Positions 24,996-45,454 of a stretch of 64,000 nucleotides of DNA are shown piece after piece (position 1 is the stretch's first letter; the number at the start of each line of letters is the position of its first letter). Under the pieces are notes generated by a model. That model saw only the letters and a list, made by a program, of their open reading frames with translations. It ran no database searches and was not told where the DNA came from. Made by a program: the position numbers and the translations under genes. The stretch is from Hujiaoplasma nucleasis (GTDB lineage Bacteria > Bacillota_I > Bacilli_A > Izemoplasmatales > Hujiaoplasmataceae), in the NCBI RefSeq assembly GCF_013745115.1, contig NZ_CP051151.1, positions 1,550,001 to 1,614,000 on the forward strand. Reading direction: 5' to 3'.

Positions 24996-25344
24996 AAAAA
25001 ATAAGAATCAAATAGATGTGCAAATTAATGAAACAAAAATCTGTTCAGTAACTTTAGATGATAAGGTGATTAATGGCTCAGATTTATATAAATCTTATAG
25101 TTGGAATATTGATGATGAATATAAACTTTCTGATTCAAATGAAAGTATTGAAAAAGAAGAACATGAGAAGACTAATATAGATTATTTATATGAGAATGTT
25201 TGTGAGTTTTTTTCAGGATTGATTTTAAGAATTCAAGAAGAGAAGGAACTTCTTCCATCTGAAAATAATCAAATTAATGCTGATGTTAAGGATAGGATTG
25301 AAAAAATTAAAATAATTTCCGAAGAAATACTTGAAGAGGAATAG
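24976..25344 (+). CDS. Small acidic partner of the PHP-ATPase
   Basis: 122-residue protein that I do not recognise. The first half is strand-rich (IIIKKNKNQIDVQINETKIC). The C-terminal half is acidic and helical, ending EKIKIISEEILEEE. The ATG at 24976 overlaps the ATPase gene by 20 bases and is preceded by AGAGAGG. Translational coupling to the ATPase suggests a subunit, inhibitor or specificity factor. There is no TM segment or enzymatic motif. Confidence 0.6.
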   Translation: MKEIIIKKNKNQIDVQINETKICSVTLDDKVINGSDLYKSYSWNIDDEYKLSDSNESIEKEEHEKTNIDYLYENVCEFFSGLILRIQEEKELLPSENNQINADVKDRIEKIKIISEEILEEE

Positions 25345-25491
25345 TGCATTTAGTATGGAGAGTTATTGATTTGACTAAGTATTGATAAAAATTAGTAATA
25401 CAGATTTAACAAAAAGTATTTATCCTTATTTAGATATTGTGAAATGATATTGAAATCTCATATTTATTGAATTGAGTTCAGAGGGCATTTT

Positions 25492-25914
25492 ATGGGCAAT
25501 TATGTTAAACATCATTACATCCCCCAATTTATTTTAAAAAGATTTTCACACGATAATAAAGTGAATGTTTTTAATCATATTAAGTTTTCATTAACAAGTA
25601 TATCAATAAGAAACCTATTTATGGTTGAGAATCTTTATGACTATTATGTTTATGAAGATATTAAAGTGATAGAAAAAGAGTTGGCTTCTAAAATTGAGTC
25701 CCCAATGGGACAAATCTGTAGTCGAGTAGTTAAAGAGTTAAAGGAAAAACCAAAAAACATAACCTTTACTAGAAAGGAACTATTGATTATTAAGAAATAT
25801 ATGATGTTGCAGTTTTATAGAACAGAAGGCAATATGACATATTACATTGGCTCTAATATTAGTAGAAAGAATGAATTATCTAAGTATAATATTAATCAAG
25901 ACTGTTGTTTTTAA
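25492..25914 (+). CDS. DUF4238 protein, apparently C-terminally truncated
   Basis: 140 residues starting GNYVKHHYIPQFILKRF, the hallmark opening of DUF4238 proteins, which are usually about 300 residues. It ends abruptly after about 140 residues with YNINQDCCF. Homology to the full-length copy at 26656 (IKHHFIPQFILRNF) covers the N-terminal half only, so this is either a naturally short form or a deletion remnant. Function is unknown. It is preceded by a 147-base gap with no gene. Confidence 0.55.
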   Translation: MGNYVKHHYIPQFILKRFSHDNKVNVFNHIKFSLTSISIRNLFMVENLYDYYVYEDIKVIEKELASKIESPMGQICSRVVKELKEKPKNITFTRKELLIIKKYMMLQFYRTEGNMTYYIGSNISRKNELSKYNINQDCCF

Positions 25915-25935
25915 AAATAGTAGAGGAGAGATGGA

Positions 25936-26616
25936 ATGTTTACTGTTAAAAAATATATTATCGGACTACTTATTGGAACAATGATTTTTTCAGGTATTGC
26001 CATAGTGGATGATATGATAGTGAAAATATCAATGGCGGCAGCTTCATCAGTAGCTTTTACAGTAGTAGGTAGTTTTTATTCAGCTGGCTTAATAACTAGT
26101 AAAGCTGAAGGCGGTAAGGCTAGAATGATAATTTTTGTTATATTACTTTGTTTTTTTCAGTATGTCTTCACTCAAATAGCCAAAGGTATAATATGGTTAT
26201 TCTCATTTCCAATATGGATTTATATTGCTATTTTATCCTTTTCAATAGCAGTTCTTATCTTAGTAATGTTATATAAAGACAAAAAAGTCAAACAAAAATA
26301 TAATGCAATTTTTAAGATTGAGAATAGAGTTGATGATTCCAGTGAACAGACATTAAATAAGTCTCCTAGTGTTGATGATAATCCTATTGTTAAGTATATG
26401 ACTATTAGGGAGTTGTTGAAAAACGAGAAAAATCTAGACTATATTAAAGCTTATCATAACAATCCGCATAGTCCCGGTTTAGAATATGTGAAAGTATATA
26501 AGAGTGCGTTAAATCATTCTAAGATTAAAGGCTATATTAAGATGGATAATGCAACTGCTTTTTGGGGGGATGTATATTATGCAGAAGATAGAAGATGGAT
26601 GAAGTTCGATTATTAG
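25936..26616 (+). CDS. Membrane protein between two DUF4238 genes
   Basis: 226 residues. There are four predicted TM segments in the first 115 residues (around 8-26, 31-50, 66-88 and 92-111), then a cytoplasmic domain of about 110 residues ending NATAFWGDVYYAEDRRWMKFDY. I do not recognise the family. It has a good AGAGGAGAG ribosome site 21 bases after the truncated DUF4238 gene and is followed by the full-length DUF4238 gene after 39 bases. It could be the membrane effector of a DUF4238-based system; this is inference. Confidence 0.6.
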   Translation: MFTVKKYIIGLLIGTMIFSGIAIVDDMIVKISMAAASSVAFTVVGSFYSAGLITSKAEGGKARMIIFVILLCFFQYVFTQIAKGIIWLFSFPIWIYIAILSFSIAVLILVMLYKDKKVKQKYNAIFKIENRVDDSSEQTLNKSPSVDDNPIVKYMTIRELLKNEKNLDYIKAYHNNPHSPGLEYVKVYKSALNHSKIKGYIKMDNATAFWGDVYYAEDRRWMKFDY

Positions 26617-26655
26617 TTATTATTGGCAACTTAAAAAAAGGAAGGATGGATAAGT

Positions 26656-27681
26656 ATGTCAGAACCAATTAAACATCATTTTATCCCACAGTTTATATTG
26701 CGTAATTTTTTAGATGAAAACCAAATAAACTATTGGAACATGAAAACTGGGAAGTTTGAGAGAAGAAATCCAAAGAGTATTTTTATGAGAAAGAATCTAT
26801 ATAAGGATGTTGAAAATCATCCTGATGAGATTATGACTATAGAAAAGAAATTTGCATCTTTAGAACGCGAGGTATCAGAGTTAATCAATAATAAAATACT
26901 TGATAAAAAGGAAATACGAATTACAAGAGCAGATAATGAGTTACTGAGAAGATTTTTGTTTTTACTAGGTTTTAGAAGTGAAAATAGGAAACGTCAGTAT
27001 CGCGATGAATTATTTGATCAATTTACAATTGAAACTTTAAAACCATTTGTCAAAAATAATAATTATGTAGATCTTTGGCTAAGAGAGTTAAATGAGATGC
27101 TAGATTTGGCATCTTTCGGAGAACTACAGAATAATAAAGAAATTTCAACTGTTATTAAGATGGATTTGCAAAGTGAGTTAAGAGACTACTATATGAGTTT
27201 TGTTGAAGCCAGAGGGCAAGAGTTTATCCTTTCGGATATTTATCCAACTACTGAGATTTTCCCTATTGATATATCAACTAAAACCAAAATCGATTTACAC
27301 GCCTTTTTCCCAATATCTCCAAATAGAGTACTAATCCTTAATTATGTTATTTTCAGAAAAGATAGAAAAGTAGATGAGCCAATGATAAATGCAATGAGAA
27401 ATTTTTCTAGAGTTGGTCCTACAATAATTGAAATTCCAAGAGTTAAATATGTTAAAAGAGGTACTTTTAGTCAAGAAGACGAGTATACTTATACAGTTAG
27501 AAAGATTTATGAAGATGAAGTATCTTATATCAATAGTCTTTACTTAAACGAGGCCAAGGACGGGTTTATATTTAATGACTTTAGTAAAGTTTTGAAATCA
27601 ATTCAAAACTACAATAATGTTGAACAATACAAAAGGAAAAACGCTTTTGAAGGAGTTGAAGATATCATAAATAATTCATAA
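26656..27681 (+). CDS. DUF4238 family protein, full length
   Basis: 341-residue soluble protein opening with IKHHFIPQFILRNFLDENQ, the conserved DUF4238 signature; the C-terminal half includes a beta-rich HAFFPISPNRVLIL segment. The domain is common in mobile and defence regions but has no established biochemical role that I know of. The HH-x-P-Q-F motif conserved with the copy at 25492 would be a candidate active or metal site. It is the last gene before att copy R2. Confidence 0.75.
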   Translation: MSEPIKHHFIPQFILRNFLDENQINYWNMKTGKFERRNPKSIFMRKNLYKDVENHPDEIMTIEKKFASLEREVSELINNKILDKKEIRITRADNELLRRFLFLLGFRSENRKRQYRDELFDQFTIETLKPFVKNNNYVDLWLRELNEMLDLASFGELQNNKEISTVIKMDLQSELRDYYMSFVEARGQEFILSDIYPTTEIFPIDISTKTKIDLHAFFPISPNRVLILNYVIFRKDRKVDEPMINAMRNFSRVGPTIIEIPRVKYVKRGTFSQEDEYTYTVRKIYEDEVSYINSLYLNEAKDGFIFNDFSKVLKSIQNYNNVEQYKRKNAFEGVEDIINNS

Positions 27682-27763
27682 TTAGTTGCACCTATTTACG
27701 ATACAACGAGCCGTACCATACCATAAGTAATTGGAACATATGATATAAAGCGCATAACAAAGG
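27680..27763 (+). repeat. att-like repeat R2
   Basis: The core GAGCCGTACCAT plus AAGTAA (27708-27730) carries a five-base tandem duplication (ACCATACCAT); without it the core would encode EPYHK-stop. The left flank AGTTGCA and ATACAAC matches R4. The tail ATATGATATAAAG then CGCATAACAAAGGC is conserved, but the terminator is lost. Confidence 0.7.
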
Positions 27764-27892
27764 CATATACATCGTTTAGCATTTACAATGCATGATTCAT
27801 ATATGGTCAGAATTACCTGTCTTTTATAATTGTTCACTATATAGTATAATTGAACAGGAAGAGATGATACTTCAGACATAGGAGGGGTTTGA

Positions 27893-28930
27893 ATGGCAAA
27901 AAAAGAATACACTACTATATTAGGTATCAGTATTTCACTATTTTTATTAGGTTTTCTATTGTTAGTAACTAGCACAGTTTTGCAAAACAGTGGAAGTGTA
28001 CAGCCGTGGATTTACAACATTCTAGGATTTAGTTTCTTTCCTGTTTGTTTAGCAAGTTTGTTTATATTATTAAAAAATCGTAAGAAGATCAAAGAATACG
28101 AAGATAACAAGAAAATGGAAAAAGGTAGAGAAATTGTTGAGAATAAAGATGATACACTCTTAAATCTCAATGCGTTGTTAGGGAACACTAAGAAATATTC
28201 ATTCATTATTCCGCTAGTTGCAGGTGTTGTATTGTTAACTTTATGGGGTGTTATACTTGATCTCTTAATGGGATATCAGCTCGAGGAATTTGATATCTAT
28301 AGTTCTTTATTGGTTATTATGGCTACTGGAATATCTTCTTTTGGGACATATTGGAGTTATCGTAGAAGAGTCAAATATCTAGAACTATATGATAAAGATA
28401 AAGAAACACTGAAAATTGAACTAATCGATATAAAAAACAATCAAGATAAACATACTAGAAATTATGATATTACAGATATAAATTATATTGATTCGCTTTT
28501 ATTGGGTTTGGGTGAAAACTTGCATCAAACCAATCCTGAAGAAGCCTTACTAAAATATCTTAAAAAAACATACGGACTAAAAAAATACAAAAACTTATGG
28601 TATTTTATACCTCCCCAAGTCTTTGGATTAATTTTCATTATATTTCATGGTGGTTTATCAGTCTTGAATGAAGGTAACTTTTGGTTCACATGGATTGGAA
28701 CAAACTTAGTATTCGGGACAATCTATATAATGTTTAGATTATCACAAAGAGAAGGTAAATACATTGTTGAAAACTATAAGCAAAACAAAAAAGATACAAT
28801 TAAGTACCTTGAGCAAAGGAGATTGGTTATATTAGGAATTAGTACAAGGTTCAACCCTCAAGTAAATACTTTGAAATACGATATATTAATCCACTTAATT
28901 AAGAGGGTTGATGTTAATCAGTTTGAATAA
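27893..28930 (+). CDS. Multi-pass membrane protein of unknown function (segment B)
   Basis: 345 residues with paired hydrophobic segments near 9-31, 39-58, 97-120, 135-150, 243-262 and 267-285. They are separated by cytoplasmic basic stretches (KNRKKIKEYEDNKK) and a central soluble loop. No enzymatic motif is recognised. It has a strong AGGAGGGG ribosome site. It is the only full gene between att copies R2 and R3, so it is a candidate single-gene cassette whose role is unknown. Confidence 0.65.
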   Translation: MAKKEYTTILGISISLFLLGFLLLVTSTVLQNSGSVQPWIYNILGFSFFPVCLASLFILLKNRKKIKEYEDNKKMEKGREIVENKDDTLLNLNALLGNTKKYSFIIPLVAGVVLLTLWGVILDLLMGYQLEEFDIYSSLLVIMATGISSFGTYWSYRRRVKYLELYDKDKETLKIELIDIKNNQDKHTRNYDITDINYIDSLLLGLGENLHQTNPEEALLKYLKKTYGLKKYKNLWYFIPPQVFGLIFIIFHGGLSVLNEGNFWFTWIGTNLVFGTIYIMFRLSQREGKYIVENYKQNKKDTIKYLEQRRLVILGISTRFNPQVNTLKYDILIHLIKRVDVNQFE

Positions 28931-28950
28931 ATATCGGGGTATTAATATGG

Positions 28951-29137
28951 AGTGTGATAAGATATTTGGAGAATTAAAGGACTAAATTGGCTTTATAATG
29001 AGTTGCTACCTTGTTTAGAGAGCGTTGTTGGATCTACAATTGCTTCAATTATTGTACTAATACTTTTTATTTGTATCCTTGCAATTGTAAGTGTGTCTAT
29101 AGGGGTTATAATTAGATTTTTTAGGGATATATTCTAG
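28951..29137 (+). pseudogene. Possible frameshifted small hydrophobic protein
   Basis: An ATG-initiated frame near 28957 reads MECDKIFGELKD and stops. A +1 frame continues WLYNELLPCLESVVGS and then a roughly 24-residue hydrophobic stretch, ending RFFRDIF at TAG 29135-29137. A single frameshift would join them into a ~60-residue single-TM protein. Alternatively, a TTG at 29003 starts a 44-residue peptide. Evidence is only the open frame and hydrophobicity. Confidence 0.3.
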
Positions 29138-29152
29138 ATGGAACATAACCCA

Positions 29153-29250
29153 TAATATGTTCCAACTAAAAATGAGACAACGAGCCATACTATAAGTAGT
29201 TGCGGCTTATGTCACAGACACCATAACAAAGCCCTTTTTGGGCTTTTTTT
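29153..29250 (+). repeat. att-like repeat R3
   Basis: The core GAGCCATACTATAAGTAG (29182-29199) encodes EPYYK-stop. The tail GTTGCGGCTTATG and ACACCATAACAAAGCCC matches R1. It ends in a strong hairpin, AAGCCC-TTTTT-GGGCTT, with eight following T. Confidence 0.78.
29229..29250 (+). terminator. Rho-independent terminator within R3
   Basis: AAGCCC and GGGCTT pair around a five-T loop, followed by a T run. It insulates segment B transcripts from the segment C promoter. Confidence 0.75.
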
Positions 29251-29268
29251 ATTATTTTCAGGGATGAA

Positions 29269-29364
29269 CTGACTTATAGAAATGTTTATGATATACTGAT
29301 TTTAGAAACCGTAAGGGGAAAACTATGCTGACCTCAAATGAGGGCTGTTTTTAAGGAGAGGTAT
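29269..29364 (+). promoter_or_regulatory. Promoter and shared leader of the Hachiman-like cassette (L2)
   Basis: The -35 CTGACT (29269-29274) and -10 TATACT (29292-29297) are 17 bases apart. The leader has ACCGTAAGGGG, the CCTC-AAAT-GAGG hairpin (29332-29343) and AAGGAGAGG. It is near-identical to L1 at 22440-22514 although the downstream genes are unrelated. Confidence 0.7.
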
Positions 29365-30141
29365 ATGTTTGACGTAACTACTGAAAAATATAATGGAGTA
29401 GAATTTCATTTTATAAAATATGAAAAATTTACAACTAGATTGAAAGATTATTTAGATGAATCACTTTCAACAATTTATAAAGGTGATTTCACTCGTGATA
29501 TTGAAGTTGTAAAAAACATGTTGAGAAAATTCTTTTTAAATAAGGCTAAATCAACTACTTTATATGGTTCAATAGCTGAACTGTTAATTCATTTATTTTT
29601 AAAGAATCAAGGCGCATTACAACTATCACTTTTTGGTAATCTTGAGGAGATTAGAACAATTAAGAAAGGTTTTGATGGATATTATTTACACAAGAATATC
29701 GAGTGGATTATGGAAAGTAAATCTAGTAAAAGTTCAACAAAAGGTGTTACACATTTAAAAAATATTAAAGAGTCTCATTCAGATATAGAAATGAAAATAA
29801 ATGGTAGTCGTCCTGAAATCAACCCATGGGAAAATGCATATAATCATGTGAGATTAATAGAAATTGATATAGACAAGAGTATTTATAACAATTTAAAAAG
29901 GATGTCGGATCTATATGAGAAAGATGTATTTCAAGAGATTGAAAAATATAACATTATTAACTCATCTACTATAGGGTTTAAATCGAATGAAAATATTTTT
30001 GATAAGTTTAGTGTAAATGACTTTGATAATTTTATTGCCCAATCCAAATTTAAAGATATGATTATCATTTGTATTGAACACAAAATTATTGTTGATATCT
30101 TGAGGTACTTCAATATAGAAAATGGTGATACATATGAGTAA
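29365..30141 (+). CDS. HamA-like (DUF1837) nuclease of a Hachiman-type defence system
   Basis: 258 residues. It has the DUF1837-type PD-(D/E)xK arrangement: Glu72 in YGSIAELLIHLF, Asp104 in KKGFDGYY, then Glu117-x-Lys119 in WIMESKSS. HamA partners a helicase in Hachiman and AbpA in AbpAB, and here a large helicase gene overlaps by eight bases. The start at 29365 is set by alignment of the leader with that of the PHP-ATPase and by AAGGAGAGG; an in-frame ATG at 29338 lies inside the leader hairpin and is rejected. Family assignment is from motifs and gene order. Confidence 0.72.
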   Translation: MFDVTTEKYNGVEFHFIKYEKFTTRLKDYLDESLSTIYKGDFTRDIEVVKNMLRKFFLNKAKSTTLYGSIAELLIHLFLKNQGALQLSLFGNLEEIRTIKKGFDGYYLHKNIEWIMESKSSKSSTKGVTHLKNIKESHSDIEMKINGSRPEINPWENAYNHVRLIEIDIDKSIYNNLKRMSDLYEKDVFQEIEKYNIINSSTIGFKSNENIFDKFSVNDFDNFIAQSKFKDMIIICIEHKIIVDILRYFNIENGDTYE

Positions 30142-32527
30142 AAATTTAAAACAAGATTTATCAAACCTTAAAAGAAATAATATGTTCCAAAATATCATGA
30201 AAAAATTATGTTTATCTAAAGAACTAGAGACTACTGAAGAAGTTTTTATACTGAATTTTGCAATGATCCTTATAGAAATGTATAAGAAGTATAACAAAAA
30301 AACATTAATTGAGTTCTCGTACTTCGTAATTTTGAAATATTCACTTACATCAAAAAATTATTTACCGTTATATGATTTTTCTTATGAAATGGGATTTTAC
30401 CCAATAATTGATGAGATTTTCAAACATAAACTAGTTGATTTCGATAGCCCTAGACAAGTAATTTACCATTCTTTAGTTAATGATTACAAGGATGATTATG
30501 TAAATACTTTTGAGCAAAAAGAGTCTAAAAGCAACTTCATTAAGTCTAAAGAAAAAGAAATTAGTTATACTGCACCTACATCATATGGCAAAAGTGAAGT
30601 TATGATATCTCTGGTAAAAGATGGAAATTATAACAATGTTTGTATTATTGTCCCCTCTAAATCATTGTTAGTTCAGACTTTCAATAGTCTTAAATCTTCT
30701 GAATTAAATTATAAATTGATTCTACATGATGAAATGTACAAGCCTGATGAATCTAGGAAGAATCTCTTTATTTTAACTCAAGAAAGGGCATTACGCTTAT
30801 TTGATAAATGGAAACCAGACTTTGACATCATTTTTGTTGATGAAGCACATAATTTGCTGGACTTAGATTCAGAGAGAAGGTCTGTTTTGTTAGCTAGATT
30901 TCTCAAAAAGTATAAGAAATCTAGAAATACTAGAATTGCATATCTTTCACCTTTTGTGGCTAAAACGTCTAGTTTGAAGATGAATGATGTAGAAATTTCT
31001 AATTATAAGATTGAATACAATATGAAAGAACCAGAATTGTATTTGTACAACAAACAATGTGAAACTTATTATTACAATCGATTTACTAACGAATTTTACT
31101 ATATAAAAACTGACTATGATTCGTATTTAGAATATATCATTGAAAATTCTAATCAGAAGAACTTTGTTTATATTACTCAACCAAAGAAGATTGAAGAGTT
31201 TGCCCATCAGTTAATTAAACATTTACCTGACATTGAATCAAATGATTTAGCTGAACTTATTTCAACAATAGAGGGTGAAGTCGATACTAATTATAATTTA
31301 GTAGAATGCTTAAAAAAAGGGGTAATATATCTTCATGCTCAAATGCCACAAATTATAAAAGAGTTTTTAGAGAGTAAGTTCAAAGAACTTTCAGATTTGA
31401 AGTGTGTAATAGGTAATAGTGTTGTTTTAGAAGGAATTAACATGCCTGTTCAAACTATGTTTATTTTGTCACAAAGTTATCTAAACGAGAAGAAAGCTCT
31501 TAACCTCATAGGAAGGGTGAATAGATTAAATTTTATTTTCAATTCAAAAGAGAATAATCTTGATATGCTTGTGCCAAGAATTCACTTTGTAGATACTGTT
31601 TACTATAATTCAAGAACATCAAAGCTAAGTAATTTCATGCTAAGATTACGTTCAACAGATTTTGATGATGACATTAAGAATCCTTTACTCGACAATTTCG
31701 AAAACATTACTGAAAAAGAAAGAGTAATACTACATGAAGAGGAATGCTTAGATGAAGATACAAAAGAAGATGTTATCAAAAATCTTGAGAAAACATTAAT
31801 CAAAAATGGAGTAAGTAAATTTTATAAGAACTTTGAAGTTAGTTTAAAAAGAATTTACAATAATATTGTGAAATTAAGAGATAATTATGAGAACATATAT
31901 GACAGGCTATATGCAATATTTATTCGATCTAATGAGAATAATACTGTGTATGGAGTAAAAAGGTTGCAAAAACCCGAGGCTAGAATGTTCTACCATTATT
32001 ACTTAGCTAACAACTATTTCAAAGGTCTAAAAGAGAATATTAGATTGCAATATACATTTTATAAAACAAAAGTTAATGATGATTACAAATTGTATGTTGA
32101 TAAGTTCGGAGAGATTTCATATAGAAGTGATGATTATGAAGAATCCTTCAAGAAATGCTATATTAATTTAAAAGGGAAATCTGATAAGGATTTAAAAAAC
32201 ATTGCAATTAGAAAAATAAGTGTGGAAGAAAAATTTATCAAGTATACATTGGGATCATTTGTAGATGCGATGTATGAATTAGGTTTAATTGTTCTTGAGG
32301 AATACAACTATTTCCACTATGGTACAACGAGATTAGAAGAATTAGATCTTATATATAGGGGAATACCATTTTATCTTGTAAAAGCTATAACAGATGACAA
32401 ACAAATTGAAAACATTATTATAGATAATTTTGGGAACCTATTAGCGAATCAAATATTTTTAGAATATCTAAAGACAAAACCAGTTCTTTTTAGATTTGAA
32501 GTAGAAAAATATATCATGAATGTTTAA
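30134..32527 (+). CDS. HamB-like superfamily 2 helicase
   Basis: About 797-residue DExH helicase. Motif I is APTSYGKSEV, motif II FVDEAHNLL, motif III AYLSPF, motif V VVLEGINMPVQT and motif VI LIGRVNRLN. A long helical C-terminal region follows. In Hachiman the helicase senses damaged or abnormal DNA and releases the HamA nuclease. The ATG at 30134 overlaps the hamA-like stop (ATGAGTAA); an ATG at 30122 is possible but has no ribosome site. Confidence 0.78.
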   Translation: MSKNLKQDLSNLKRNNMFQNIMKKLCLSKELETTEEVFILNFAMILIEMYKKYNKKTLIEFSYFVILKYSLTSKNYLPLYDFSYEMGFYPIIDEIFKHKLVDFDSPRQVIYHSLVNDYKDDYVNTFEQKESKSNFIKSKEKEISYTAPTSYGKSEVMISLVKDGNYNNVCIIVPSKSLLVQTFNSLKSSELNYKLILHDEMYKPDESRKNLFILTQERALRLFDKWKPDFDIIFVDEAHNLLDLDSERRSVLLARFLKKYKKSRNTRIAYLSPFVAKTSSLKMNDVEISNYKIEYNMKEPELYLYNKQCETYYYNRFTNEFYYIKTDYDSYLEYIIENSNQKNFVYITQPKKIEEFAHQLIKHLPDIESNDLAELISTIEGEVDTNYNLVECLKKGVIYLHAQMPQIIKEFLESKFKELSDLKCVIGNSVVLEGINMPVQTMFILSQSYLNEKKALNLIGRVNRLNFIFNSKENNLDMLVPRIHFVDTVYYNSRTSKLSNFMLRLRSTDFDDDIKNPLLDNFENITEKERVILHEEECLDEDTKEDVIKNLEKTLIKNGVSKFYKNFEVSLKRIYNNIVKLRDNYENIYDRLYAIFIRSNENNTVYGVKRLQKPEARMFYHYYLANNYFKGLKENIRLQYTFYKTKVNDDYKLYVDKFGEISYRSDDYEESFKKCYINLKGKSDKDLKNIAIRKISVEEKFIKYTLGSFVDAMYELGLIVLEEYNYFHYGTTRLEELDLIYRGIPFYLVKAITDDKQIENIIIDNFGNLLANQIFLEYLKTKPVLFRFEVEKYIMNV

Positions 32528-32539
32528 AAGGAGTTAACT

Positions 32540-33298
32540 ATGGTTGATTATGAAAAAAGAAGGTACGCAATTTTAAAAGAATATTTTAAAAATAAAAATA
32601 GATATATATACGAGAAACACATAGTGTCTATTTTAGATGATCTAAAAGAAATGTTTGACAAACATAGTGTAGTTATGGAACAGGGAACCATATTATATAG
32701 AAGTCAAATTGGTTCTGAATGGGTTGAAGAAAATGGTAATGGGCAGTTACTACCTTATAATAAGGCTAGAATGTATCCAAGAAAAAGACTTGCTCGAGAA
32801 GGAAGAGCAAACCCTAAGGGAATTCCCTACTTATATTTAGCATCCGACACTGAAACATCACTCAATGAGGTTAGAGCATGGCCAGGACAGGAAGTGTCAA
32901 CGTGTACATTTACAAGCGAAAAAGAGCTAAGATTAGTAGATCTAAGTAAAAAAAGAGAGTCAGGACTAGCATCAATGGTTATCAATATCAAAAAGGGTAA
33001 GATTATGTCCAAAGATTCTAATGACAACTTACTTGGTGAAATTAATCAGGCTTTTACTACTCCAGTGAGAAATTCGGATGATTCATCAGATTATGTAGTC
33101 ACACAAATTATATCAGAACTTATAAAAACAGAAGGATATGATGGGATTGTGTATAACTCTTATTTTACAAAAAGTGGTAAGAATATTGTGATTTTCGATA
33201 GTTCTAATATGATCATTAAGAATGGTCTTGTTTTTAGAATAAATGCATTTAATATTGAATATGAGCAAATTTCGAATGCTGTTCGATATAAAAATTAA
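32540..33298 (+). CDS. RES-domain protein (putative NAD-degrading toxin) in the Hachiman-like operon
   Basis: 252 residues. RES-domain features are visible: ILYRSQIG (Arg), GRANPKGIPYLYLASD, ETSLNEVRAWPG (Glu) and GYDGIVYNSYF plus KSGKNIVIF (Ser region). RES proteins of toxin-antitoxin systems degrade NAD+. Here no antitoxin gene follows, and the gene is twelve bases behind the helicase with an AAAGGAG site, so I infer it is a third component or abortive effector of the system. Confidence 0.75.
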   Translation: MVDYEKRRYAILKEYFKNKNRYIYEKHIVSILDDLKEMFDKHSVVMEQGTILYRSQIGSEWVEENGNGQLLPYNKARMYPRKRLAREGRANPKGIPYLYLASDTETSLNEVRAWPGQEVSTCTFTSEKELRLVDLSKKRESGLASMVINIKKGKIMSKDSNDNLLGEINQAFTTPVRNSDDSSDYVVTQIISELIKTEGYDGIVYNSYFTKSGKNIVIFDSSNMIIKNGLVFRINAFNIEYEQISNAVRYKN

Positions 33299-33320
33299 CT
33301 AGATTTTAATTGTTAAACGA

Positions 33321-33420
33321 TTCATATTAAGTTGCAATTAAAAGTGATACAACGAGCCATATCATAAATGATTAAAAAAATGATATAAAAAGCATATCAA
33401 AGCCCTTTCGGGCTTTTTTT
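33321..33420 (+). repeat. att-like repeat R4
   Basis: The core GAGCCATATCATAAATGA (33354-33371) encodes EPYHK-stop and differs at two positions from the staphylococcal core GAAGCATATCATAAATGA. The left flank AGTTGCAATTAAAAGTGATA resembles R2. The tail ATGATATAAAAAGCATATC is followed by a terminator. Confidence 0.8.
33399..33420 (+). terminator. Rho-independent terminator within R4
   Basis: Perfect stem AAAGCCC (33399-33405) and GGGCTTT (33410-33416), loop TTTC, then T residues. It ends the HamA-HamB-RES transcript. Confidence 0.85.
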
Positions 33421-33809
33421 ATTTGATAGGGACATGTAACATATATGAATTTGTATCCAAAAGATGAAAAATTATTTGAGACTATACTATATATGGTGGA
33501 ATACTTCATACAATTAACTTTTCCTATTCCAAGGATATAAAATCTTAAAAAAGAATCGAGAATACTTGAAGGAGGTCTTTCAAGAGAAATAATAATTTTA
33601 TGACAAGATTTTGTAGGTTATATCATATTAGAATAAGGTGTGAGTTTAAGAAATTCAATATCATCCTTTTTACTATCTATCAATGTATCAATTTTTAGTG
33701 ATATGCTTTTTTTTATAACCTGTGTTATTATTGTTAATGAAATATATTTCAGGACATTGTTTAAAAACTTGTGTATATATTTACAGAAGCAATTTATTGT
33801 GCTTATTGA
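33421..33809. other. Gene-poor start of segment D
   Basis: About 390 bases of AT-rich DNA between R4 and the sigma factor gene. A 70-codon open frame (33640-33852) overlaps the sigma gene, lacks a ribosome site and looks random. A CTTGAA/TTCAAG inverted repeat is near 33569. No clear promoter boxes were found; an ECF-type autoregulated promoter could lie here. Confidence 0.5.
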
Positions 33810-34352
33810 ATGGAGAACTGCGTGGATTACAATATTATTAAAGAAATTTTAAACGGAGATAAAAATCAATTTAATCAACTCATAGATAAGTACTACTATG
33901 AGATCTTTAAGTTTACATATAATCAAGTGAACGATGTCGAAAAGACAAAAGATGTTGTTCAAGAAATATTCATGAGGATATATAAAAAGCTAAGCAAATA
34001 TAATCCTAAGAAAGCGTCTTTTAGAACATGGATCTATAGGATTGCGAATAACTACTGCATTAATTACCATCGAGACCATCATAAAGATCAACATCTTGTT
34101 CTTCATGGAGAAAGAATATCGGATTCTGAAGATATATTGAACAACTTGATAAAAAAGGAAGATGTTTCATATATTTTAGATCTTATGGAAAAAAACTTGA
34201 GTCAAAGAAACTACAAAATACTGATTTTGCATTTTTATAGCGATTTATCGCAAACAGATATTGGAGAAACTATGAATCTTGCGCCTAAAACAGTTAGAAA
34301 TATTGTTTCAGAAAGCATTCAAAAAATTAGAGCATTAGTCGGAGGTGAATGA
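33810..34352 (+). CDS. ECF-type RNA polymerase sigma factor
   Basis: 180-residue sigma-70 family protein of the extracytoplasmic-function class. Region 2 is visible (KYYYEIFKFTYNQ, KDVVQEIFMRIYKKL, SFRTWIYRIANNYCINYHR). Region 4 has the helix-turn-helix LSQTDIGETMNLAPKTVRNIV. An in-frame GTG at 33822 with TGGAGA upstream is a credible alternative start. It overlaps no gene but is one base short of the GGAGG-led anti-sigma-like gene, as in sigma/anti-sigma pairs. It ends in TGA. Confidence 0.88.
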   Translation: MENCVDYNIIKEILNGDKNQFNQLIDKYYYEIFKFTYNQVNDVEKTKDVVQEIFMRIYKKLSKYNPKKASFRTWIYRIANNYCINYHRDHHKDQHLVLHGERISDSEDILNNLIKKEDVSYILDLMEKNLSQRNYKILILHFYSDLSQTDIGETMNLAPKTVRNIVSESIQKIRALVGGE

Positions 34353-34353
34353 C

Positions 34354-37300
34354 TTGTATAATTATAAAAAAACATGTTTAATCACAGATCAAGATATTCA
34401 TTTATTTTATAATGAAGAAAAGAATAAAATTATGTCCAGCATTAATGAAGTGAAATCAGAAAATCTTTATATATTTCCCTTTATTAAATATGCTTGGATG
34501 CCTGTTTTACTGATAATTGTTAGCCTTAGTCTTATTTTGTTTATCAAACCAATTACAGGAGATGATGATAGGCAGATTTTTAAAAATAATTTTCATTTGG
34601 TGAGTCAAAAATTATCAGATATAGTTGATCATGCTAGTATCAATGATTTAAGTAAGCACAGAACAAATCAGATGAAAGAATTATCTTATTCCAAATTTAT
34701 AGATAGACAATCCCTCTTAGATGCATATCTTAAAGGTGAAACAAATATTGTATATGATGACTATTTAGAGCAACTTTTAACAACCAAGGACTTTATAGAA
34801 GACATTGAAGATATTGTTTTGAATTCATCGAATTGGCAGTTAGATGAGGACATTATCCCTGATGAAAATATAGATGTATCCTTTAGGTTCCTTTTGTCTA
34901 GTGATGACTATATTGTGATCAAAAAGAGGAGTGGCCAAGAATATTCAACAATAAAACTTGGTATAGAAAGTAATCAACTTATTTATTATGATATCCATTA
35001 TAGTTACGATTTTTCTTCGGATTTCATTAATAATGAAGCATCACTAAATTTTAATTATTTTCATTTTATTGAAGATGATCAAGCTGTATATATTAATAGT
35101 CTAACTGATCTATTTACATTAAGATATACATCAATTATTGATGGATCTCAATTCACAATTAGTCGGGGTAATCAGGTTGTTGAAGGACTAGAATCCTCAG
35201 ATGGCTATAGCTTTTACTCATATGACTCAGAGGCTTTGGTCACACGATACTTTCAAGTCGTGGATGAAGTTATTGTATCTGAAACCTTTGATGTTTATAG
35301 TAACCATGGTTTGTTATACCGGTATGAGGACCTAGATTATTCTAGTGACTTAACTTACTTATATGTTAATATAGTGCCGGCTCTAGGTTGGGACTACTTG
35401 TGCATTGAAGACACAGATGATCAGTTAGAAGGTGTATATTTAGAAGATGGGTCTCCTTTATTTACGGGTCATATCTATTATACATATACACCAAAATATG
35501 GATATGCTGCTTTTAAACAAACCATTGAAAAAAATGATTTCTCTGATGACCATTTTAAATTAACTGAGTATGGAATGAATTTATCAGAAGAAAAGGCAAG
35601 CATTGAGTATTTAGATTCAATTAGGATATCAAACTTTGAACAAGCGAAAGAAGATTTCTTTGTCGAGGGAATAGATTTCTTTACAGAGGATTTAAAATCA
35701 GAATTATACAATTATATCGACAAAGATCTATTGATTGAATTTAATGCTGAAAGCAATTCTGGGGAGGATATTGTTACTGGAGATGTTGAGGCTTTTGAAA
35801 ATGAAATATTTGATTTTGAACAAGCTTTTTCATTAAAAGGGCATTTGGTTATGGAAAGTGATGTAACAATTGCTGTTTATGACGGCGACCACCTTATCCA
35901 AAGTCAAGTGAACAGTCAACATACTAAATACGATATATTAGATATGTATTTAGAAAGAAGAACATTTAGTGGTCAATTGTTTGGGACGCAAGAAATCATC
36001 ATGGCTTATGAGGGACAATTAGTTTCATTTACAAATGATGATGGACCTGTTACTGATTTTGAAATTGTGAGTCAGTCAGCGAGTCCTCAAATTTTTATGG
36101 AATATTTAATGACCGAATATCCTGAATTGGATTTATTAGATGGGGTGAACCATATTGAGTCTCAAGGACAGGGTGTTTATAAAGTGACCTTAAATGATGA
36201 TTTTTTTGGAGACGAGATCAATATGGATTTGGTTTTCAATCAAATGGGCATTGATGGGTTCTCAGAGGCAATGATTGAAGCCATCTATACCTTTAATCAA
36301 AATCATCAATCATATGATGTTGTACTTACAATCACTGGGCTGAAAACAATTGAAGGCGCCTATGATGTGACATATATAGAAACAACCAATGTTTCTATTG
36401 AATCTTTTATAAAAAAGAATCCTTTAGAATCACTTATCTTTTTTAGGTTACCGCAAACAAGGGATGGTATTATATTTGATTCAAATATCAATCAATTAAA
36501 TGTCTATTATATTAATGAGGGTGAATCATGGATGAGGTTGTATTTAGAAGAGGGTGTCTATTCCTCGAGTATTTATGGAAGTTCTAATAGCAACTTATCT
36601 TATGTCTTAATTGATGAGAATGGACAAATAATTGATGATAGTAACTATCGATTTGAAATTGGTGCGTCTGGTTATTATTACTATAAGTTCAACTCTTCTG
36701 TTAAACAGCGAATAGATACAAGGATTAGTGAAAACCCTTATCCTAAGAACCAAGATATCACAATGGATCAAAGTAATGATCTCATTGAATTGTATAGTCA
36801 ATTAGAGACGGATACTTATAACTTGTTTACCAATATAGATGATAAAGAGAGGGTATTGCGTTTAACATTAAATCCTATAAATCAAGATTTTTTAGTCATC
36901 AACGAATTAGATGCTTTGGGAGATTACATCAACGATTATTTTTTCGAAAATTATGTAAATGTTGTTTATATTTTAATCCCTGAGAATACTAGAGTTGATT
37001 TTGAGATTTCAGGTATGTATCAAGGTCAATTTTCTTTTGCTTATGACTACCTATATCCTCCAGTATCTGAAGAATCGGATGTAAGATATGAAGTTGATAA
37101 TCTTGATGATTTTCCTCATGCTATCATGAACGAATATGTGACAAAGGTGAGGTATGATTTTAGTATTGAAGAAGAAGGTTATTATAAGTTAGATAAAAAT
37201 ATGATTACTTTTGGACTTTATCTAGATTTAAAAATGGCCCTTTATGATTCCGAGGGTACAAGACTTAGAATTTCGGACCATGCCATATATGAAACATTGC

Positions 37301-37383
37301 AAGCAGGTAACTATTATATAGAGTTTTATTTTATAGAAGCAGATAGTGGCTTATTAATATTAATGCCCACTGTGAATCGATAG
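34354..37383 (+). CDS. Giant membrane-anchored ectodomain protein, putative anti-sigma factor
   Basis: About 1009 residues. A cytosolic N-terminus of some 40 residues (with IHLFYNEEKNKIMSSINEV) precedes one TM segment (YAWMPVLLIIVSLSLILFI) and a roughly 940-residue acidic, Tyr/Asp-rich extracellular region without a domain I recognise. The last third resembles pre-peptidase-like beta domains (EEGVYSSSIYGSSNSNLSYV, AGNYYIEFYF). Gene order with the sigma factor suggests an anti-sigma whose ectodomain senses a signal. TTG at 34354 has GGAGG eight bases upstream; a GTG at 34345 overlaps that site. Confidence 0.6.
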   Translation: MYNYKKTCLITDQDIHLFYNEEKNKIMSSINEVKSENLYIFPFIKYAWMPVLLIIVSLSLILFIKPITGDDDRQIFKNNFHLVSQKLSDIVDHASINDLSKHRTNQMKELSYSKFIDRQSLLDAYLKGETNIVYDDYLEQLLTTKDFIEDIEDIVLNSSNWQLDEDIIPDENIDVSFRFLLSSDDYIVIKKRSGQEYSTIKLGIESNQLIYYDIHYSYDFSSDFINNEASLNFNYFHFIEDDQAVYINSLTDLFTLRYTSIIDGSQFTISRGNQVVEGLESSDGYSFYSYDSEALVTRYFQVVDEVIVSETFDVYSNHGLLYRYEDLDYSSDLTYLYVNIVPALGWDYLCIEDTDDQLEGVYLEDGSPLFTGHIYYTYTPKYGYAAFKQTIEKNDFSDDHFKLTEYGMNLSEEKASIEYLDSIRISNFEQAKEDFFVEGIDFFTEDLKSELYNYIDKDLLIEFNAESNSGEDIVTGDVEAFENEIFDFEQAFSLKGHLVMESDVTIAVYDGDHLIQSQVNSQHTKYDILDMYLERRTFSGQLFGTQEIIMAYEGQLVSFTNDDGPVTDFEIVSQSASPQIFMEYLMTEYPELDLLDGVNHIESQGQGVYKVTLNDDFFGDEINMDLVFNQMGIDGFSEAMIEAIYTFNQNHQSYDVVLTITGLKTIEGAYDVTYIETTNVSIESFIKKNPLESLIFFRLPQTRDGIIFDSNINQLNVYYINEGESWMRLYLEEGVYSSSIYGSSNSNLSYVLIDENGQIIDDSNYRFEIGASGYYYYKFNSSVKQRIDTRISENPYPKNQDITMDQSNDLIELYSQLETDTYNLFTNIDDKERVLRLTLNPINQDFLVINELDALGDYINDYFFENYVNVVYILIPENTRVDFEISGMYQGQFSFAYDYLYPPVSEESDVRYEVDNLDDFPHAIMNEYVTKVRYDFSIEEEGYYKLDKNMITFGLYLDLKMALYDSEGTRLRISDHAIYETLQAGNYYIEFYFIEADSGLLILMPTVNR

Positions 37384-37395
37384 GAGGTAGTAGTA

Positions 37396-38928
37396 ATGCG
37401 TTTATTAAGTAAAATGATAATGTTTAGTCTTGTTTTTCTACTTTTGTTTACAGCTCTTGCATGTCAAGAAGTGTTAGAGACAAGTCAAGAGATAACGAAT
37501 CTCGAAGAAACGACAAGTAACGAAACAACAACTGAACAAATAACAACTGAACAAATAACAACTGAACAAATAACAACACCTATCCCCTCAACAACCACAG
37601 AAATGGTGACTGAGAGCATTTCATATGAGATAGAAAACGACCTAACAACATCATTGGGAATTTATCGATTTGACGGTAATTTTGTGAATCCAGAGTATCA
37701 TCCCTTTATAGGTAATTTAACTTTTACTTTAGAAATCAATGATGAGAATTATCGTAATTCAACGTATTTTGTTGTCGTAAGAGAGTTGAACTCACCAAAT
37801 TATGATTTTTTACAAGCTTTTACTATTGACGAAAGTCAAGTATCTAGGTTTCATTCCATCGATTATACACCTGGAAAAGAAGTAATTGTTGCTAAAATAG
37901 ATGGAACGGTTTATAACGATCATGTTTATCTTGAACCTGTCGCATCTTTGCTTGTTGAAGATTTGATGGCTGATTCAAGAAATACTTTATCTGGATACAA
38001 CATGATTGGAAATTCTTTAAGAGATATAGAAGTGGATGAAACGCCATATTTAGAGATTACCCTAACAGCTATCGACCCAGAAAGAATCATTTCTTCAATA
38101 AAAGCAATGGTATATTATCCAGAATATGGTTTAGTGCTTGACACAAAAGATTTTGAAATCAGCGAAGAAATGTATTTGGATGATGGACTCTCAATAGAAA
38201 ACATTATCTTTGATAATCTTCCACCTGACAAGACATTCACAATCATTTATTTTATGACTGGAAATGATGGTGTAGATGACTTTGAAGACGTTTTAGTAAC
38301 TTCGAAGAGAATGACGACATCAAAGTATGCACTTGGTTCAGGTATCACAAATAGCTATCCAGGTTTTTGGGGTGTCATTCATAATCTTGAACTCAATGAA
38401 ACATATACTAGGATTAATATACATTATGTTAATGATCAAGTTTTATCAATCGATGATGAATACTTAACATCCAGTTTAAATGTATATGATGAGACTGGTC
38501 ATTTAGTTAAAAATTATCCATTAGTTGGTCATATGTCTTATATAGATATAGATAATGAATATTTGGATGATTATTATAGTTTAAGAATCGAATGTGATCA
38601 AGTAGATGATCTCTTAGCTGTATATCATATCAGATATGGTTTTGATGGTTTAGATTTTATAAATGCAACTTATGCAGAGCAAAATTTACGAGTGAGTTAC
38701 CAAGGAACATGGGTTGAGGTATTATCTATATATATTAAAATTACTCAGGTTGGTGGTGAATCAAATATCATAGAAGTCACTCTCAAGGACTTAGATGAAG
38801 GTTACACTGATATATATTATCCTGAAGGACCTGATGGATATTTTAGTCAATATGACGCTTATATAGAGATCACTTTTATAGGTTTTAAAGGTGAAGAAGT
38901 TCATGTGACTGGATATTCAAAACGATAG
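37396..38928 (+). CDS. Surface lipoprotein with Thr-rich stalk
   Basis: 510 residues. The signal peptide ends FTALAC, giving lipid-modified Cys23 (Leu at -2 rather than -3). A low-complexity Thr/Glu stalk (residues about 38-75) includes three TTEQI repeats, followed by a large beta-rich extracellular region without a recognised domain. It has an AGGAGG ribosome site twelve bases after the ectodomain protein, so it belongs to the sigma-factor operon and may be its target or co-sensor. Confidence 0.68.
   Translation: MRLLSKMIMFSLVFLLLFTALACQEVLETSQEITNLEETTSNETTTEQITTEQITTEQITTPIPSTTTEMVTESISYEIENDLTTSLGIYRFDGNFVNPEYHPFIGNLTFTLEINDENYRNSTYFVVVRELNSPNYDFLQAFTIDESQVSRFHSIDYTPGKEVIVAKIDGTVYNDHVYLEPVASLLVEDLMADSRNTLSGYNMIGNSLRDIEVDETPYLEITLTAIDPERIISSIKAMVYYPEYGLVLDTKDFEISEEMYLDDGLSIENIIFDNLPPDKTFTIIYFMTGNDGVDDFEDVLVTSKRMTTSKYALGSGITNSYPGFWGVIHNLELNETYTRINIHYVNDQVLSIDDEYLTSSLNVYDETGHLVKNYPLVGHMSYIDIDNEYLDDYYSLRIECDQVDDLLAVYHIRYGFDGLDFINATYAEQNLRVSYQGTWVEVLSIYIKITQVGGESNIIEVTLKDLDEGYTDIYYPEGPDGYFSQYDAYIEITFIGFKGEEVHVTGYSKR
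37528..37577 (+). repeat. 15-base tandem repeat in the lipoprotein stalk
   Basis: Three exact copies of ACAACTGAACAAATA plus five further bases. The unit is a multiple of three, so slippage would lengthen the TTEQI stalk without shifting the frame. Confidence 0.9.
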
Positions 38929-38950
38929 TATTGCTAAAGTTTTCTTTTAT

Positions 38951-39006
38951 AGAGCCTGTAAGTTCTAATAATCTTTACTGATATATTTTCTTTACAGGCT
39001 CTTTTT
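38951..39006 (+). terminator. Rho-independent terminator after the lipoprotein gene
   Basis: AGAGCCTGTAA (38951-38961) pairs perfectly with TTACAGGCTCT (38992-39002), followed by five T. The loop is long, about 30 bases. Confidence 0.75.
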
Positions 39007-39036
39007 CATTATTCTGTTATGGTATAATTAACATGG

Positions 39037-39107
39037 TTCAATAAAAAAATTACATCTAGCCATATCATAAATAATTGCAACTAATGAAATGCACATTGTA
39101 ACAAAGC
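39037..39107 (+). repeat. att-like repeat R5, right end of the island
   Basis: The core TAGCCATATCATAAATAA (39057-39074) matches R4 at 15 of 18 positions. The tail TTGCAACTAATGAAATG then CATTGTAACAAAGC matches R1. The left flank TTCAATAAAAAAATTACATC resembles the R4 flank. Leading GAG has become TAG. Confidence 0.68.
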
Positions 39108-39131
39108 TAGTCATAATATAGGGAGTTAACT

Positions 39132-39671
39132 ATGGATAAACATCTTTTATTTACTGAAACAAAGCGATTAACTATAAGGAATTTCACGATGGATGATATT
39201 TTGGATTATTATGAATATCTATCCGATCCTGAGGTGTTACGGTTTGAACCCTATAAAGCTCAAACGATGGACCAAATGGAAAATATTATTTTAGAAGATA
39301 TTAATTCTAATAACAAACTTGCTGTAGAGTTAAAATCTTCCAAGAAGATGATTGGAAATATATATTTTGGTGATATAGACTCAGAGACAAAAGTGTTAGG
39401 ATATGTATTTAACAAAAAGTATTGGAATCAAGGCTATGCAAAAGAAGCAACAAAATCAATCATTGACTTGTCATTTAAATATTCAATACAAAGAATTGAA
39501 GCAAGATGTGACCCATTGAATATACCTTCTTGGAAGCTCTTAGAAAGTCTTGGTTTTACACGGCTTTCTCATTTAAAGAAGAATACATATTTTTGGAAAG
39601 ATAAAGATGGTAATCCAATTTGGAAAGATACATATATTTATTCACTTAATAAAGATGAACATATCAAATAA
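39132..39671 (+). CDS. GNAT N-acetyltransferase, RimJ/RimL-like
   Basis: 179-residue cytoplasmic acetyltransferase. The N-terminus TETKRLTIRNFTMDDILDYYEYLSDP is typical of the RimL/ribosomal-protein-type GNAT family. The acetyl-CoA region is in NKKYWNQGYAKEATKSIIDLS. The C-terminal half has DPLNIPSWKLLESLGF. The substrate is unknown. It has a good ribosome site and lies between R5 and a weak copy at 39804, so it could be a further small cassette. Confidence 0.85.
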   Translation: MDKHLLFTETKRLTIRNFTMDDILDYYEYLSDPEVLRFEPYKAQTMDQMENIILEDINSNNKLAVELKSSKKMIGNIYFGDIDSETKVLGYVFNKKYWNQGYAKEATKSIIDLSFKYSIQRIEARCDPLNIPSWKLLESLGFTRLSHLKKNTYFWKDKDGNPIWKDTYIYSLNKDEHIK

Positions 39672-44638: not shown

Positions 44639-45454
44639 TTGAAATATTTAAAAATGAATAATGACTTATCTATTCCTGTTTTAGGTACAGGAACAAATAC
44701 TTTTGGTAAAGAAAATAATATTTTCTCCGGTAAAATTACTTATGATACATTAGAACTTCTTTCTGCAATCAAACTTGGTTATAGATTAATAGATACAGCT
44801 ATTATGTATCGTAATGAAGCAGTCATTGGAAAAGCGGTTAAAGAATCTGGAATTGATAGAAGTGAGTTTTTCATTACTTCAAAAATACCGGCTGATAAAG
44901 AATATACTGATACTGATGAAAACGTAGAAAAGTATATATATAGATCTCTTAAAGAATTAGATATGAATTATATTGATTTATACTTAATTCATTTTCCTCT
45001 AGAATCAAATGAAGAAAATTTGCGTGTATGGCGTGTATTGGAGGAGTTTGTAAAAAAAGGATTAATTAAGTCAATAGGTGTATCAAATTTTAATGAAAAT
45101 CAATTAGCCTATTTAATAAAGCATTCTCATATCAAACCCGTTCTTAATCAATTTCAATCTTATCCAGGAAAGCACCAGCAATCATTGATTGATTTTTGTA
45201 AAGAAAATAACGTTATTCCTGAAGCATACCAATCATTGACTAAAATTGATGATAAAACTAAAGACATCTTAATTGAAATTGCTAAAGTATATAATAAAAC
45301 ATGGAGTCAGGTCGTCTTAAATTATCAAATCAATGAAGGTTTAGTTGTGATTCCCAAATCTCATAATAAAGACCATCAGTTTGAAAATATAGATGTTTTC
45401 AATTTCGAGTTAAGTGAAAAGGATATAGAAATCATTAAAAAAATAGGTTCCTAA
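44639..45454 (+). CDS. Aldo-keto reductase
   Basis: 271-residue NADPH-dependent TIM-barrel oxidoreductase. Catalytic residues are visible: Asp and Tyr in LIDTAIMYRNE, Lys in ITSKIP and His in LYLIHFP. The cofactor region is VIPKSHNKDH. The start is TTG at 44639 with AAAGG upstream; it restores the family N-terminus MKYLKMNNDLSIPVLGTGT. The physiological substrate is unknown. A terminator follows immediately. Confidence 0.9.
   Translation: MKYLKMNNDLSIPVLGTGTNTFGKENNIFSGKITYDTLELLSAIKLGYRLIDTAIMYRNEAVIGKAVKESGIDRSEFFITSKIPADKEYTDTDENVEKYIYRSLKELDMNYIDLYLIHFPLESNEENLRVWRVLEEFVKKGLIKSIGVSNFNENQLAYLIKHSHIKPVLNQFQSYPGKHQQSLIDFCKENNVIPEAYQSLTKIDDKTKDILIEIAKVYNKTWSQVVLNYQINEGLVVIPKSHNKDHQFENIDVFNFELSEKDIEIIKKIGS

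What the first reader, a model, noticed from the sequence alone, without database searches (positions are those of the whole stretch)
33810..38928. ECF sigma factor, 1009-residue ectodomain protein and Thr-stalk lipoprotein on the island
The sigma gene abuts a protein with a short cytosolic tail, one TM and ~940 extracellular residues, then a lipoprotein with a repeat stalk. Large-ectodomain anti-sigma factors exist for substrate sensing, but this trio lies between att copies R4 and R5 and its ectodomain is unfamiliar. It may be a mobile surface-sensing or adhesion system.
Basis: partly seen in the sequence, partly recalled or inferred. Interest (0 to 1): 0.55.

Follow-up and report, generated by a model that had tools for sequence, protein, structure and literature searches.

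The report
Chimeric surface-sensing sigma-factor switch cassette
In a bacterium related to Acholeplasma, three neighbouring genes appear to join a known kind of gene switch (a sigma factor held by a membrane protein) to a large outer-surface protein of another family, between repeats like those that bound staphylococcal cassettes; it is a new combination of known parts, not a new kind of system.

Summary
The three genes are as described: they look like one transcription unit between two terminators, inside repeats R4 and R5 of an array that starts at the 3' end of rlmH. The middle protein is very probably an anti-sigma factor. Its 46-residue tail matches a profile built, without it, from four tails encoded next to related sigma factors (E 3.5e-5; best unrelated of 1,898 ORFs 0.18). 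A promoter matrix built from the same four relatives, without the window, ranks the site upstream of this sigma gene first in the 64 kb. The ~945-residue ectodomain is not theirs: of 14 relatives elsewhere, the 11 with a readable N-terminus are all lipoproteins, and no sigma gene was found near any of the 14. So this is a domain-swapped sensor. A weak structure model suggests two collagen-binding/PPC-like domains. The third protein belongs to another lipoprotein family. The exact promoter pattern occurs once in the 1.81-Mb genome, so the switch may mainly control itself. Mobility rests on repeats only; no PF07508 serine recombinase lies in the window. Binding, ligand and excision are untested. 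New variant of a known kind.

The parts
33350..33419 (+). repeat R4 (rlmH/SCC-like attachment-type repeat; core 33354-33370), left boundary
33399..33416 (+). intrinsic terminator inside R4, upstream of the trio
   Evidence: -9.8 kcal/mol, z -3.0, 1 of 200 shuffles as good
33748..33778 (+). group-B ECF-type promoter: TTCAGGA (33748-33754), 14-nt spacer, TTGTGTATAT (33769-33778); a 16-nt reading scores the same
33810..34352 (+). ECF sigma factor, 180 aa
34354..37383 (+). single-pass membrane protein, 1009 aa, proposed anti-sigma factor with swapped ectodomain (alternative GTG start at 34345)
34354..34491 (+). codons 1-46: cytosolic tail homologous to tails encoded next to group-B sigma factors
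36421..36735 (+). residues 690-794: PPC/collagen-binding-like beta-sandwich in the model
   Evidence: Z 12.4 to 3jqw_A, rmsd 2.5 over 102
37063..37380 (+). residues 904-1009: second PPC/collagen-binding-like beta-sandwich in the model
   Evidence: Z 11.1 to 1nqj_A, rmsd 2.1 over 92; unrelated beta-sandwich rows score nearly as high
37396..38928 (+). lipoprotein, 510 aa, member of a lipoprotein family found elsewhere without sigma genes
37523..37577 (+). 15-nt tandem repeat coding the Thr-rich stalk (TTEQI units)
38951..39002 (+). intrinsic terminator after the lipoprotein gene
   Evidence: -19.6 kcal/mol, z -6.1, 0 of 200 shuffles as good; not listed, whose loop limit is 8
39054..39076 (+). 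repeat R5, right boundary (core 39057-39073)

Best explanation
The unit is a self-contained transmembrane switch. The 46-residue tail of the 1009-aa protein holds the ECF sigma factor inactive at the membrane (inferred from tail homology and gene layout). Binding of an outside ligand, surface or partner by the ~945-residue ectodomain ends that hold, most likely by proteolysis that ends at the site-2 protease the genome encodes (inferred). Freed sigma then transcribes from the TTCAGGA...TTGTGTATAT promoter in front of its own gene (motif shown, use inferred) and raises sigma, receptor and lipoprotein together: positive autoregulation of a surface sensor or adhesin. The receptor is a domain swap: where its relatives have a signal peptide and lipobox, this one has the tail and membrane helix of a group-B anti-sigma factor (shown by comparison; the direction of events is inferred). 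The unit sits between two rlmH-type attachment repeats and may move as a cassette without its own recombinase (inferred).
For: Tail: a profile from 4 group-B tails, window left out, finds the window tail at E 3.5e-5, the first hit outside its training set (1.3e-4 with the GTG start); the best unrelated ORF of 1,898 scores 0.18. Promoter: a matrix from the 4 relatives, window left out, ranks 33748 first of 639,680 position-spacer combinations on both strands, 19.3 against 15.7 for the next site. Pattern TTCRGGA-N12-18-TTGTRTATAT: once in the own genome, reversed control 0; 7 sites in 150 genomes, reversed control 1, 4 of the 7 directly upstream of a group-B sigma gene (these four are also what the pattern was made from). 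Sigma lies in a supported set of 8 of 24 rows (98/97) that holds the 3 group-B rows and no group-A row. Ectodomain: 14 relatives in other genomes, 11 with a readable N-terminus, all lipoprotein-like, no sigma-like ORF in any of the 14 stretches; alignment starts right after the membrane helix. Group A and B membrane proteins align over tail and helix only (75 columns, Prob 85.5, E 5.8e-6), so tails and ectodomains do part company. One M50 site-2 protease, E 1.1e-58. Terminators on both sides.
Against: No binding, transcription or proteolysis was tested. In the sigma tree the window stands outside the other 7 rows of its set (90/87) and its nearest rows by path are group A, so 'group B' rests on tail and promoter. 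The window site differs from the relatives' consensus at two bases, and the pattern was widened to admit it. Three of the 7 pattern sites lie in genomes without a group-B sigma (G009, G020, G146; contexts not examined), and G013's group-B site (ATCGGGA) is missed. The -10 part alone is no signal: 19 matches at <=1 mismatch in the window against 13.5 expected, 8 of 100 shuffles reach it. Only the exact pattern was sought genome-wide, so 'controls itself only' is not shown. M50 proteases occur in 14 of 14 control genomes. The model is weak (mean pLDDT 47.2).
Confidence: 0.72

Rival explanations
1. The membrane protein is simply an adhesin anchored by its N-terminal helix; sigma drives a surface-protein operon and is not controlled by the tail.
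For: Its relatives are lipoproteins without a sigma gene nearby; two C-terminal domains look like binding modules; a stalked lipoprotein gene follows.
Against: The tail is homologous to tails encoded directly after group-B sigma genes; a plain adhesin needs no such tail.
Confidence: 0.15
2. The trio is a fixed chromosomal operon that happens to lie between two repeats; it is not a mobile unit.
For: No PF07508 serine recombinase in the window; R4 and R5 each differ from the core consensus by one base; G+C of the three genes (0.295, 0.308, 0.319) is near that of the window (0.295).
Against: The core is otherwise absent from the genome at 0-1 mismatch; rlmH regions of related genomes hold other genes between like repeats, some of them recurring in another order; no trio relative lies in the 17 rlmH regions fetched.
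Confidence: 0.3
3. The unit is a chance fusion without a working sensor.
For: Only one genome with this combination was found (150 searched with the membrane protein; 396 with the group-B sigma profile).
Against: Three long intact frames, both terminators and a matching promoter are kept; the ectodomain keeps many residues conserved in its family.
Confidence: 0.08

Closest known systems
RsgI anti-sigma factors of Clostridium thermocellum (PMC12203970; passages seen)
   Same: Short N-terminal cytosolic part, one membrane helix, divergent substrate-sensing C-terminal domain; sigma partner; cleavage by RseP in the membrane.
   Different: The partner there is SigI, not an ECF factor; no Pfam family at E<=1 was found in this protein (that Pfam holds an RsgI_N model is recalled); ectodomain unrelated by all searches made.
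Class II (CnrY-like) anti-sigma domains, taken there as shorter than 50 residues (PMC7406223; passages seen)
   Same: A tail of 46 residues falls in that size class.
   Different: No sequence comparison with CnrY was made; likeness of size only.
Group A and group B sigma/anti-sigma operons of related genomes (this work; names mine)
   Same: Sigma gene, then a membrane protein with a related tail; group B shares the promoter type; group A is followed by a lipoprotein gene in 10 of 15 loci.
   Different: Ectodomains unrelated (hhalign Prob 1.1 and 0.1). In group A the next lipoprotein shares the receptor's ectodomain (E 1e-50); here only the signal-peptide ends align.
SCC composite islands with surface proteins, e.g. 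SesJ (PMC7029136; passages seen), and the enterococcal ECC (PMC6222049; passages seen)
   Same: Repeats at the 3' end of rlmH; staphylococcal repeat GAAGCGTATCACAAATAA against R1 GAGCCGTATCACAAATAG; surface proteins as cargo.
   Different: No PF07508 recombinase in the window; several small units in a row instead of one large element.

Membership tests
ECF sigma factor | Regions 2 and 4, ~180 aa, ECF profile over its cut-off | tested here: met
   Sigma70_r2 2.7e-16, Sigma70_r4 1.7e-7, TIGR02937 96 bits over cut-off 42.9
Membrane-bound anti-sigma factor | Gene directly after the sigma gene | tested here: met
   1 nt between stop and TTG start
Membrane-bound anti-sigma factor | Cytosolic part homologous to those encoded next to related sigma factors | tested here: met
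   E 3.5e-5 against 0.18 for the best unrelated ORF of 1,898; that those relatives are anti-sigma factors is itself inferred from their layout
Membrane-bound anti-sigma factor | Binds and inhibits the sigma factor | not testable with these tools
   needs an experiment
RsgI family | RsgI N-terminal domain (Pfam model recalled) | tested here: not met
   no Pfam family at E<=1 in the 1012-aa protein
Class I anti-sigma domain | Domain of about 100 residues, zinc type with Hx3Cx2C | tested here: not met
   tail of 46 residues with one Cys (sequence); size and signature from PMC7406223 passages
PPC / collagen-binding domain | Beta-sandwich fold of this type | tested here: inconclusive
   residues 690-794 Z 12.4 to 3jqw_A; 904-1009 Z 11.1 to 1nqj_A and 5sv5, but PliG (10.6) and GOLD domains (9.9) score nearly as high; block pLDDT 59-88 for 691-790, 44-47 for 901-920, 59-85 for 921-1009
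PPC / collagen-binding domain | Sequence profile match | tested here: not met
   no Pfam family at E<=5 in the window protein; no PDB sequence at E<=1 for the family profile
SCC element | Direct repeats that begin with the 3' end of rlmH | tested here: met
SCC element | ccr serine recombinase genes in the element | tested here: not met
   6 PF07508 matches in the genome, none in the window; those six score best against CcrB but far below the cut-offs

The most novel reading that the evidence does not exclude
The rlmH arrays of this bacterial order work as a cassette system for surface traits, and this cassette is a self-contained receptor switch whose main target is itself: receptors arise by plugging surface lipoproteins onto a conserved anti-sigma tail, and the whole unit is moved by Ccr-like recombinases encoded elsewhere in the genome.
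Probability: 0.25. Interest if true: 0.75.

Novelty: new variant of a known kind. Interest (0 to 1): 0.52.

Why it matters
It is a concrete case of a signal receptor made by putting an anti-sigma tail and membrane helix in place of the lipoprotein anchor of an unrelated surface protein, with tail, promoter and ectodomain each traceable to separate relatives. If the rlmH repeats are active, such switches could be exchanged between strains as single units, which would link cassette mobility to changes of surface and of signalling in relatives of Acholeplasma, on whose ECF signalling my search of the open library listed no paper by title.

Tried and rejected
RsgI membership: not filed, no Pfam match. 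Homology of the window ectodomain with group A or B ectodomains: none by hhalign. Homology of the third protein with the receptor: only N-terminal stretches of 33-35 columns align. Toxin reading: Foldseek's long alignments to botulinum HA and Clostridium perfringens enterotoxin chains have rmsd 19-27 A and cover poorly modelled regions; the enterotoxin C-terminal rows share a beta-sandwich with many unrelated proteins; I draw no toxin conclusion. Lipoprotein structure: single-sequence model, mean pLDDT 41.1, not used. Sigma-70 promoters in 33200-39200: 32 found, 40.1 expected, so no evidence. Terminators by that scan: 3 found, 1.5 expected. Ectodomain in phage and plasmid records: no match. 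First genome-contig scan with the window protein: none of 75 stretches. Viral contigs: none of 600 stretches, with the A2 alignment, whose confirming sequence is the G014 relative and not the window. Literature: by the listings I saw no paper on ECF switches or rlmH cassettes in Acholeplasma or Tenericutes; this covers only the open library.

Unresolved: what the pattern sites in G009, G020 and G146 are; which recombinase, if any, acts on the repeats; the organism's name.
Full report
What is there. Three same-strand genes lie between repeats R4 (33350) and R5 (39054): an ECF sigma factor (33810-34352, 180 aa), a membrane protein (34354-37383, 1009 aa from TTG; 1012 aa from GTG) and a lipoprotein (37396-38928, 510 aa). 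The sigma gene scores clearly as ECF. The membrane protein has no Pfam match at E<=1; the lipoprotein has one weak one (Mucin, 0.24). The gaps are 1 nt and 12 nt. A terminator stands before the unit inside R4 (33399-33416) and a strong one directly after it (38951-39002, -19.6 kcal/mol, z -6.1). The unit therefore looks like one transcript; no RNA data exist here.

Related sigma operons. The sigma factor has 26 matches at E<=1e-20 in 23 of 150 related genomes, the own genome included. I fetched surroundings for 24 of the 26, the window's own counted (not G073 and one of two in G146). In one search, 22 sigma-like ORFs had a same-strand ORF starting within 250 nt; where a membrane helix was predicted it began near residue 31-53. 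One search scanned ten proteins of these loci, eight such membrane proteins and two lipoproteins: no Pfam match reached its cut-off. Two kinds of tail are visible (names mine). Group A tails read NRxID...SKxRTIxxVM; group B tails read ITDxxIxxFxxxEIxKI (L086, L095, L096, L113). The window tail, LITDQDIHLFYNEEKNKI, is of the second kind. A profile built from the four group-B tails only finds the window tail at E 3.5e-5; the best hit that is neither a training tail nor the window is 0.18, among 1,898 ORFs, a set with duplicates because some loci were fetched more than once. A profile of the five group-B-like sigma factors gave no sixth member: of 396 genomes, own included, only those five score E 9.7e-78 or better (by construction), and the next is 4.1e-56.

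The promoter. Upstream of sigma genes I looked at 26 regions. The motif GAGAA-N13-19-(T)TGTATATAT is in 10 of 15 group-A loci (missing in L081, L083, L087, L093, L094) and nowhere else; TCGGGA-N13-18-TTGTATATAT is in 4 of 4 group-B loci and nowhere else. In 20,000 random 330-nt stretches of the fetched loci, which are redundant, the first motif occurs 210 times and the second, widened to admit the window, 96 times. The window has TTCAGGA-N14-TTGTGTATAT. A matrix from the four relatives alone puts this site first in the window on both strands. The widened exact pattern occurs once in the own genome, reversed control 0, and at 7 places in 150 genomes, reversed control 1. Four of the 7 lie in front of group-B sigma genes, the window's among them; since the pattern was drawn from these, the telling part is that only 3 others exist. 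Both groups share the -10 part and differ in the -35 part, as expected if sigma regions 2 and 4 read them (established ECF knowledge). On this evidence sigma drives its own operon. No second exact site exists in the genome; weaker sites were not sought genome-wide.

The sigma tree. Of 24 rows, L113 not among them, the window falls in a set of 8 (98/97) with three group-B rows and four distant rows, apart from the group-A rows. Inside it the other 7 group together (90/87), so the window is not nested in group B.

The ectodomain is swapped in. A search of 150 related genomes with the membrane protein matched 11, one being the own genome; the other ten hold 11 relatives, two in G139. Of these 14 relatives, 11 have a readable N-terminus and all 11 begin, by eye, with a lipoprotein signal peptide; three are cut or broken there (G030, G016, G027). 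Sigma-like ORFs were sought in all 14 stretches (4.8-19 kb) and in 7 stretches around relatives of the third gene (3.8-19 kb): none. Four relatives are short (413-448 aa; the G079 match has a stop inside), so the family seems to have a short form. The alignment to the lipoproteins begins just after the window's membrane helix. Group-A and group-B membrane proteins align with each other only over tail and helix (75 columns, Prob 85.5, E 5.8e-6), and neither resembles the window ectodomain. The tail is thus a conserved plug on different ectodomains, and the window is a third combination.

What the ectodomain may bind. The AlphaFold model on six sequences is poor overall (mean pLDDT 47.2) but better in the C-terminal third. 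Residues 690-794 match the ColH collagen-binding domain (Z 12.4, rmsd 2.5 over 102). Residues 904-1009 match the ColG collagen-binding and B. anthracis PPC domains (Z 11.1), with PliG (10.6) and GOLD domains (9.9) close behind. Foldseek gives the same domains (5sv5, 1nqj_A, TMt 0.67 and 0.70, E 1.1e-3 and 1.7e-3), below longer and meaningless rows. Sequence profiles do not confirm it. A binding module is likely; no ligand can be named.

The third gene. Relatives occur in 13 of 150 genomes, own included, several at weak E-values. Those examined, eight proteins from seven genomes with one N-terminus cut, are lipoproteins by eye, two in tandem in G014. A lipoprotein gene follows the anti-sigma gene in 10 of 15 group-A loci (L080-L084, L088-L091, L094); profiles of 10 group-A membrane proteins and 7 of those lipoproteins share an ectodomain (E 1e-50). 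In the window receptor and lipoprotein are not so related. A partner role is likely by position only.

The island. R1 is the end of rlmH (21873-22349, SPOUT_MTase 1.1e-55). The core occurs at 0-1 mismatch four times in the genome, all here; R2 has two mismatches. Of 17 related rlmH regions fetched (1.9-19.7 kb), 7 hold three or more copies at <=2 mismatches (G001 6, G003 5, G004 7, G017 3, G035 3, G041 3, G039 6), 3 hold one or two (G013, G037, G045) and 7 none. In the five whose genes I listed, contents differ, though some passengers recur in another order (L193 and L195). No trio relative was found in the 17. The repeats resemble staphylococcal direct repeats listed in PMC7029136 (passages). 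Six large serine recombinases in three tandem pairs lie elsewhere in the genome; all six score best against NCBIfam CcrB, far below its cut-off. I call this an SCC-like repeat-bounded unit, not an SCC element.

Mechanism, marked. Shown by sequence: gene layout, terminators, tail homology, promoter match, ectodomain origin, repeats. Inferred: the tail holds sigma; ligand or surface contact leads to proteolysis and release (one M50 protease, but such proteases are near universal); sigma amplifies its own operon; the unit can move. It works like RsgI-SigI sensing (PMC12203970, passages) but is not filed as a member.

Verdict. A real and well-formed unit, a new variant of a known kind.

Noticed in passing
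window 22329-39076; L193, L194, L195, L197, L198, L199, L209: rlmH-anchored arrays of 3-7 SCC-like repeats with small passengers in 7 of 17 related rlmH regions; some passengers recur in another order in L193 and L195.
   Followed up: partly
L069, L070, L071 (own genome 83 kb, 621 kb, 1007 kb): Three tandem pairs of large serine recombinases, all six with NCBIfam CcrB as best hit but far below its cut-off.
   Followed up: partly
L080-L084, L088-L091, L094 (group-A operons): Anti-sigma ectodomain and the lipoprotein of the next gene are homologous (profile E 1e-50): a receptor with a sibling lipoprotein.
   Followed up: partly
window 25492-27681: Two DUF4238 genes in the R1-R2 unit, the first matching only positions 1-112 of the 281-position profile.
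   Followed up: no
window 30122-33298: Helicase-like protein followed by a RES-domain protein in the R3-R4 unit; possibly a defence or toxin-type pair.
   Followed up: no
L104 6116-10560 (own genome 1748 kb): Another sigma/membrane protein/lipoprotein set in the own genome, distant from groups A and B.
   Followed up: no
window 44639-45454; L193, L195, L199: Aldo/keto reductase 74-79% identical in three related rlmH regions, at different places relative to the repeats.
   Followed up: no
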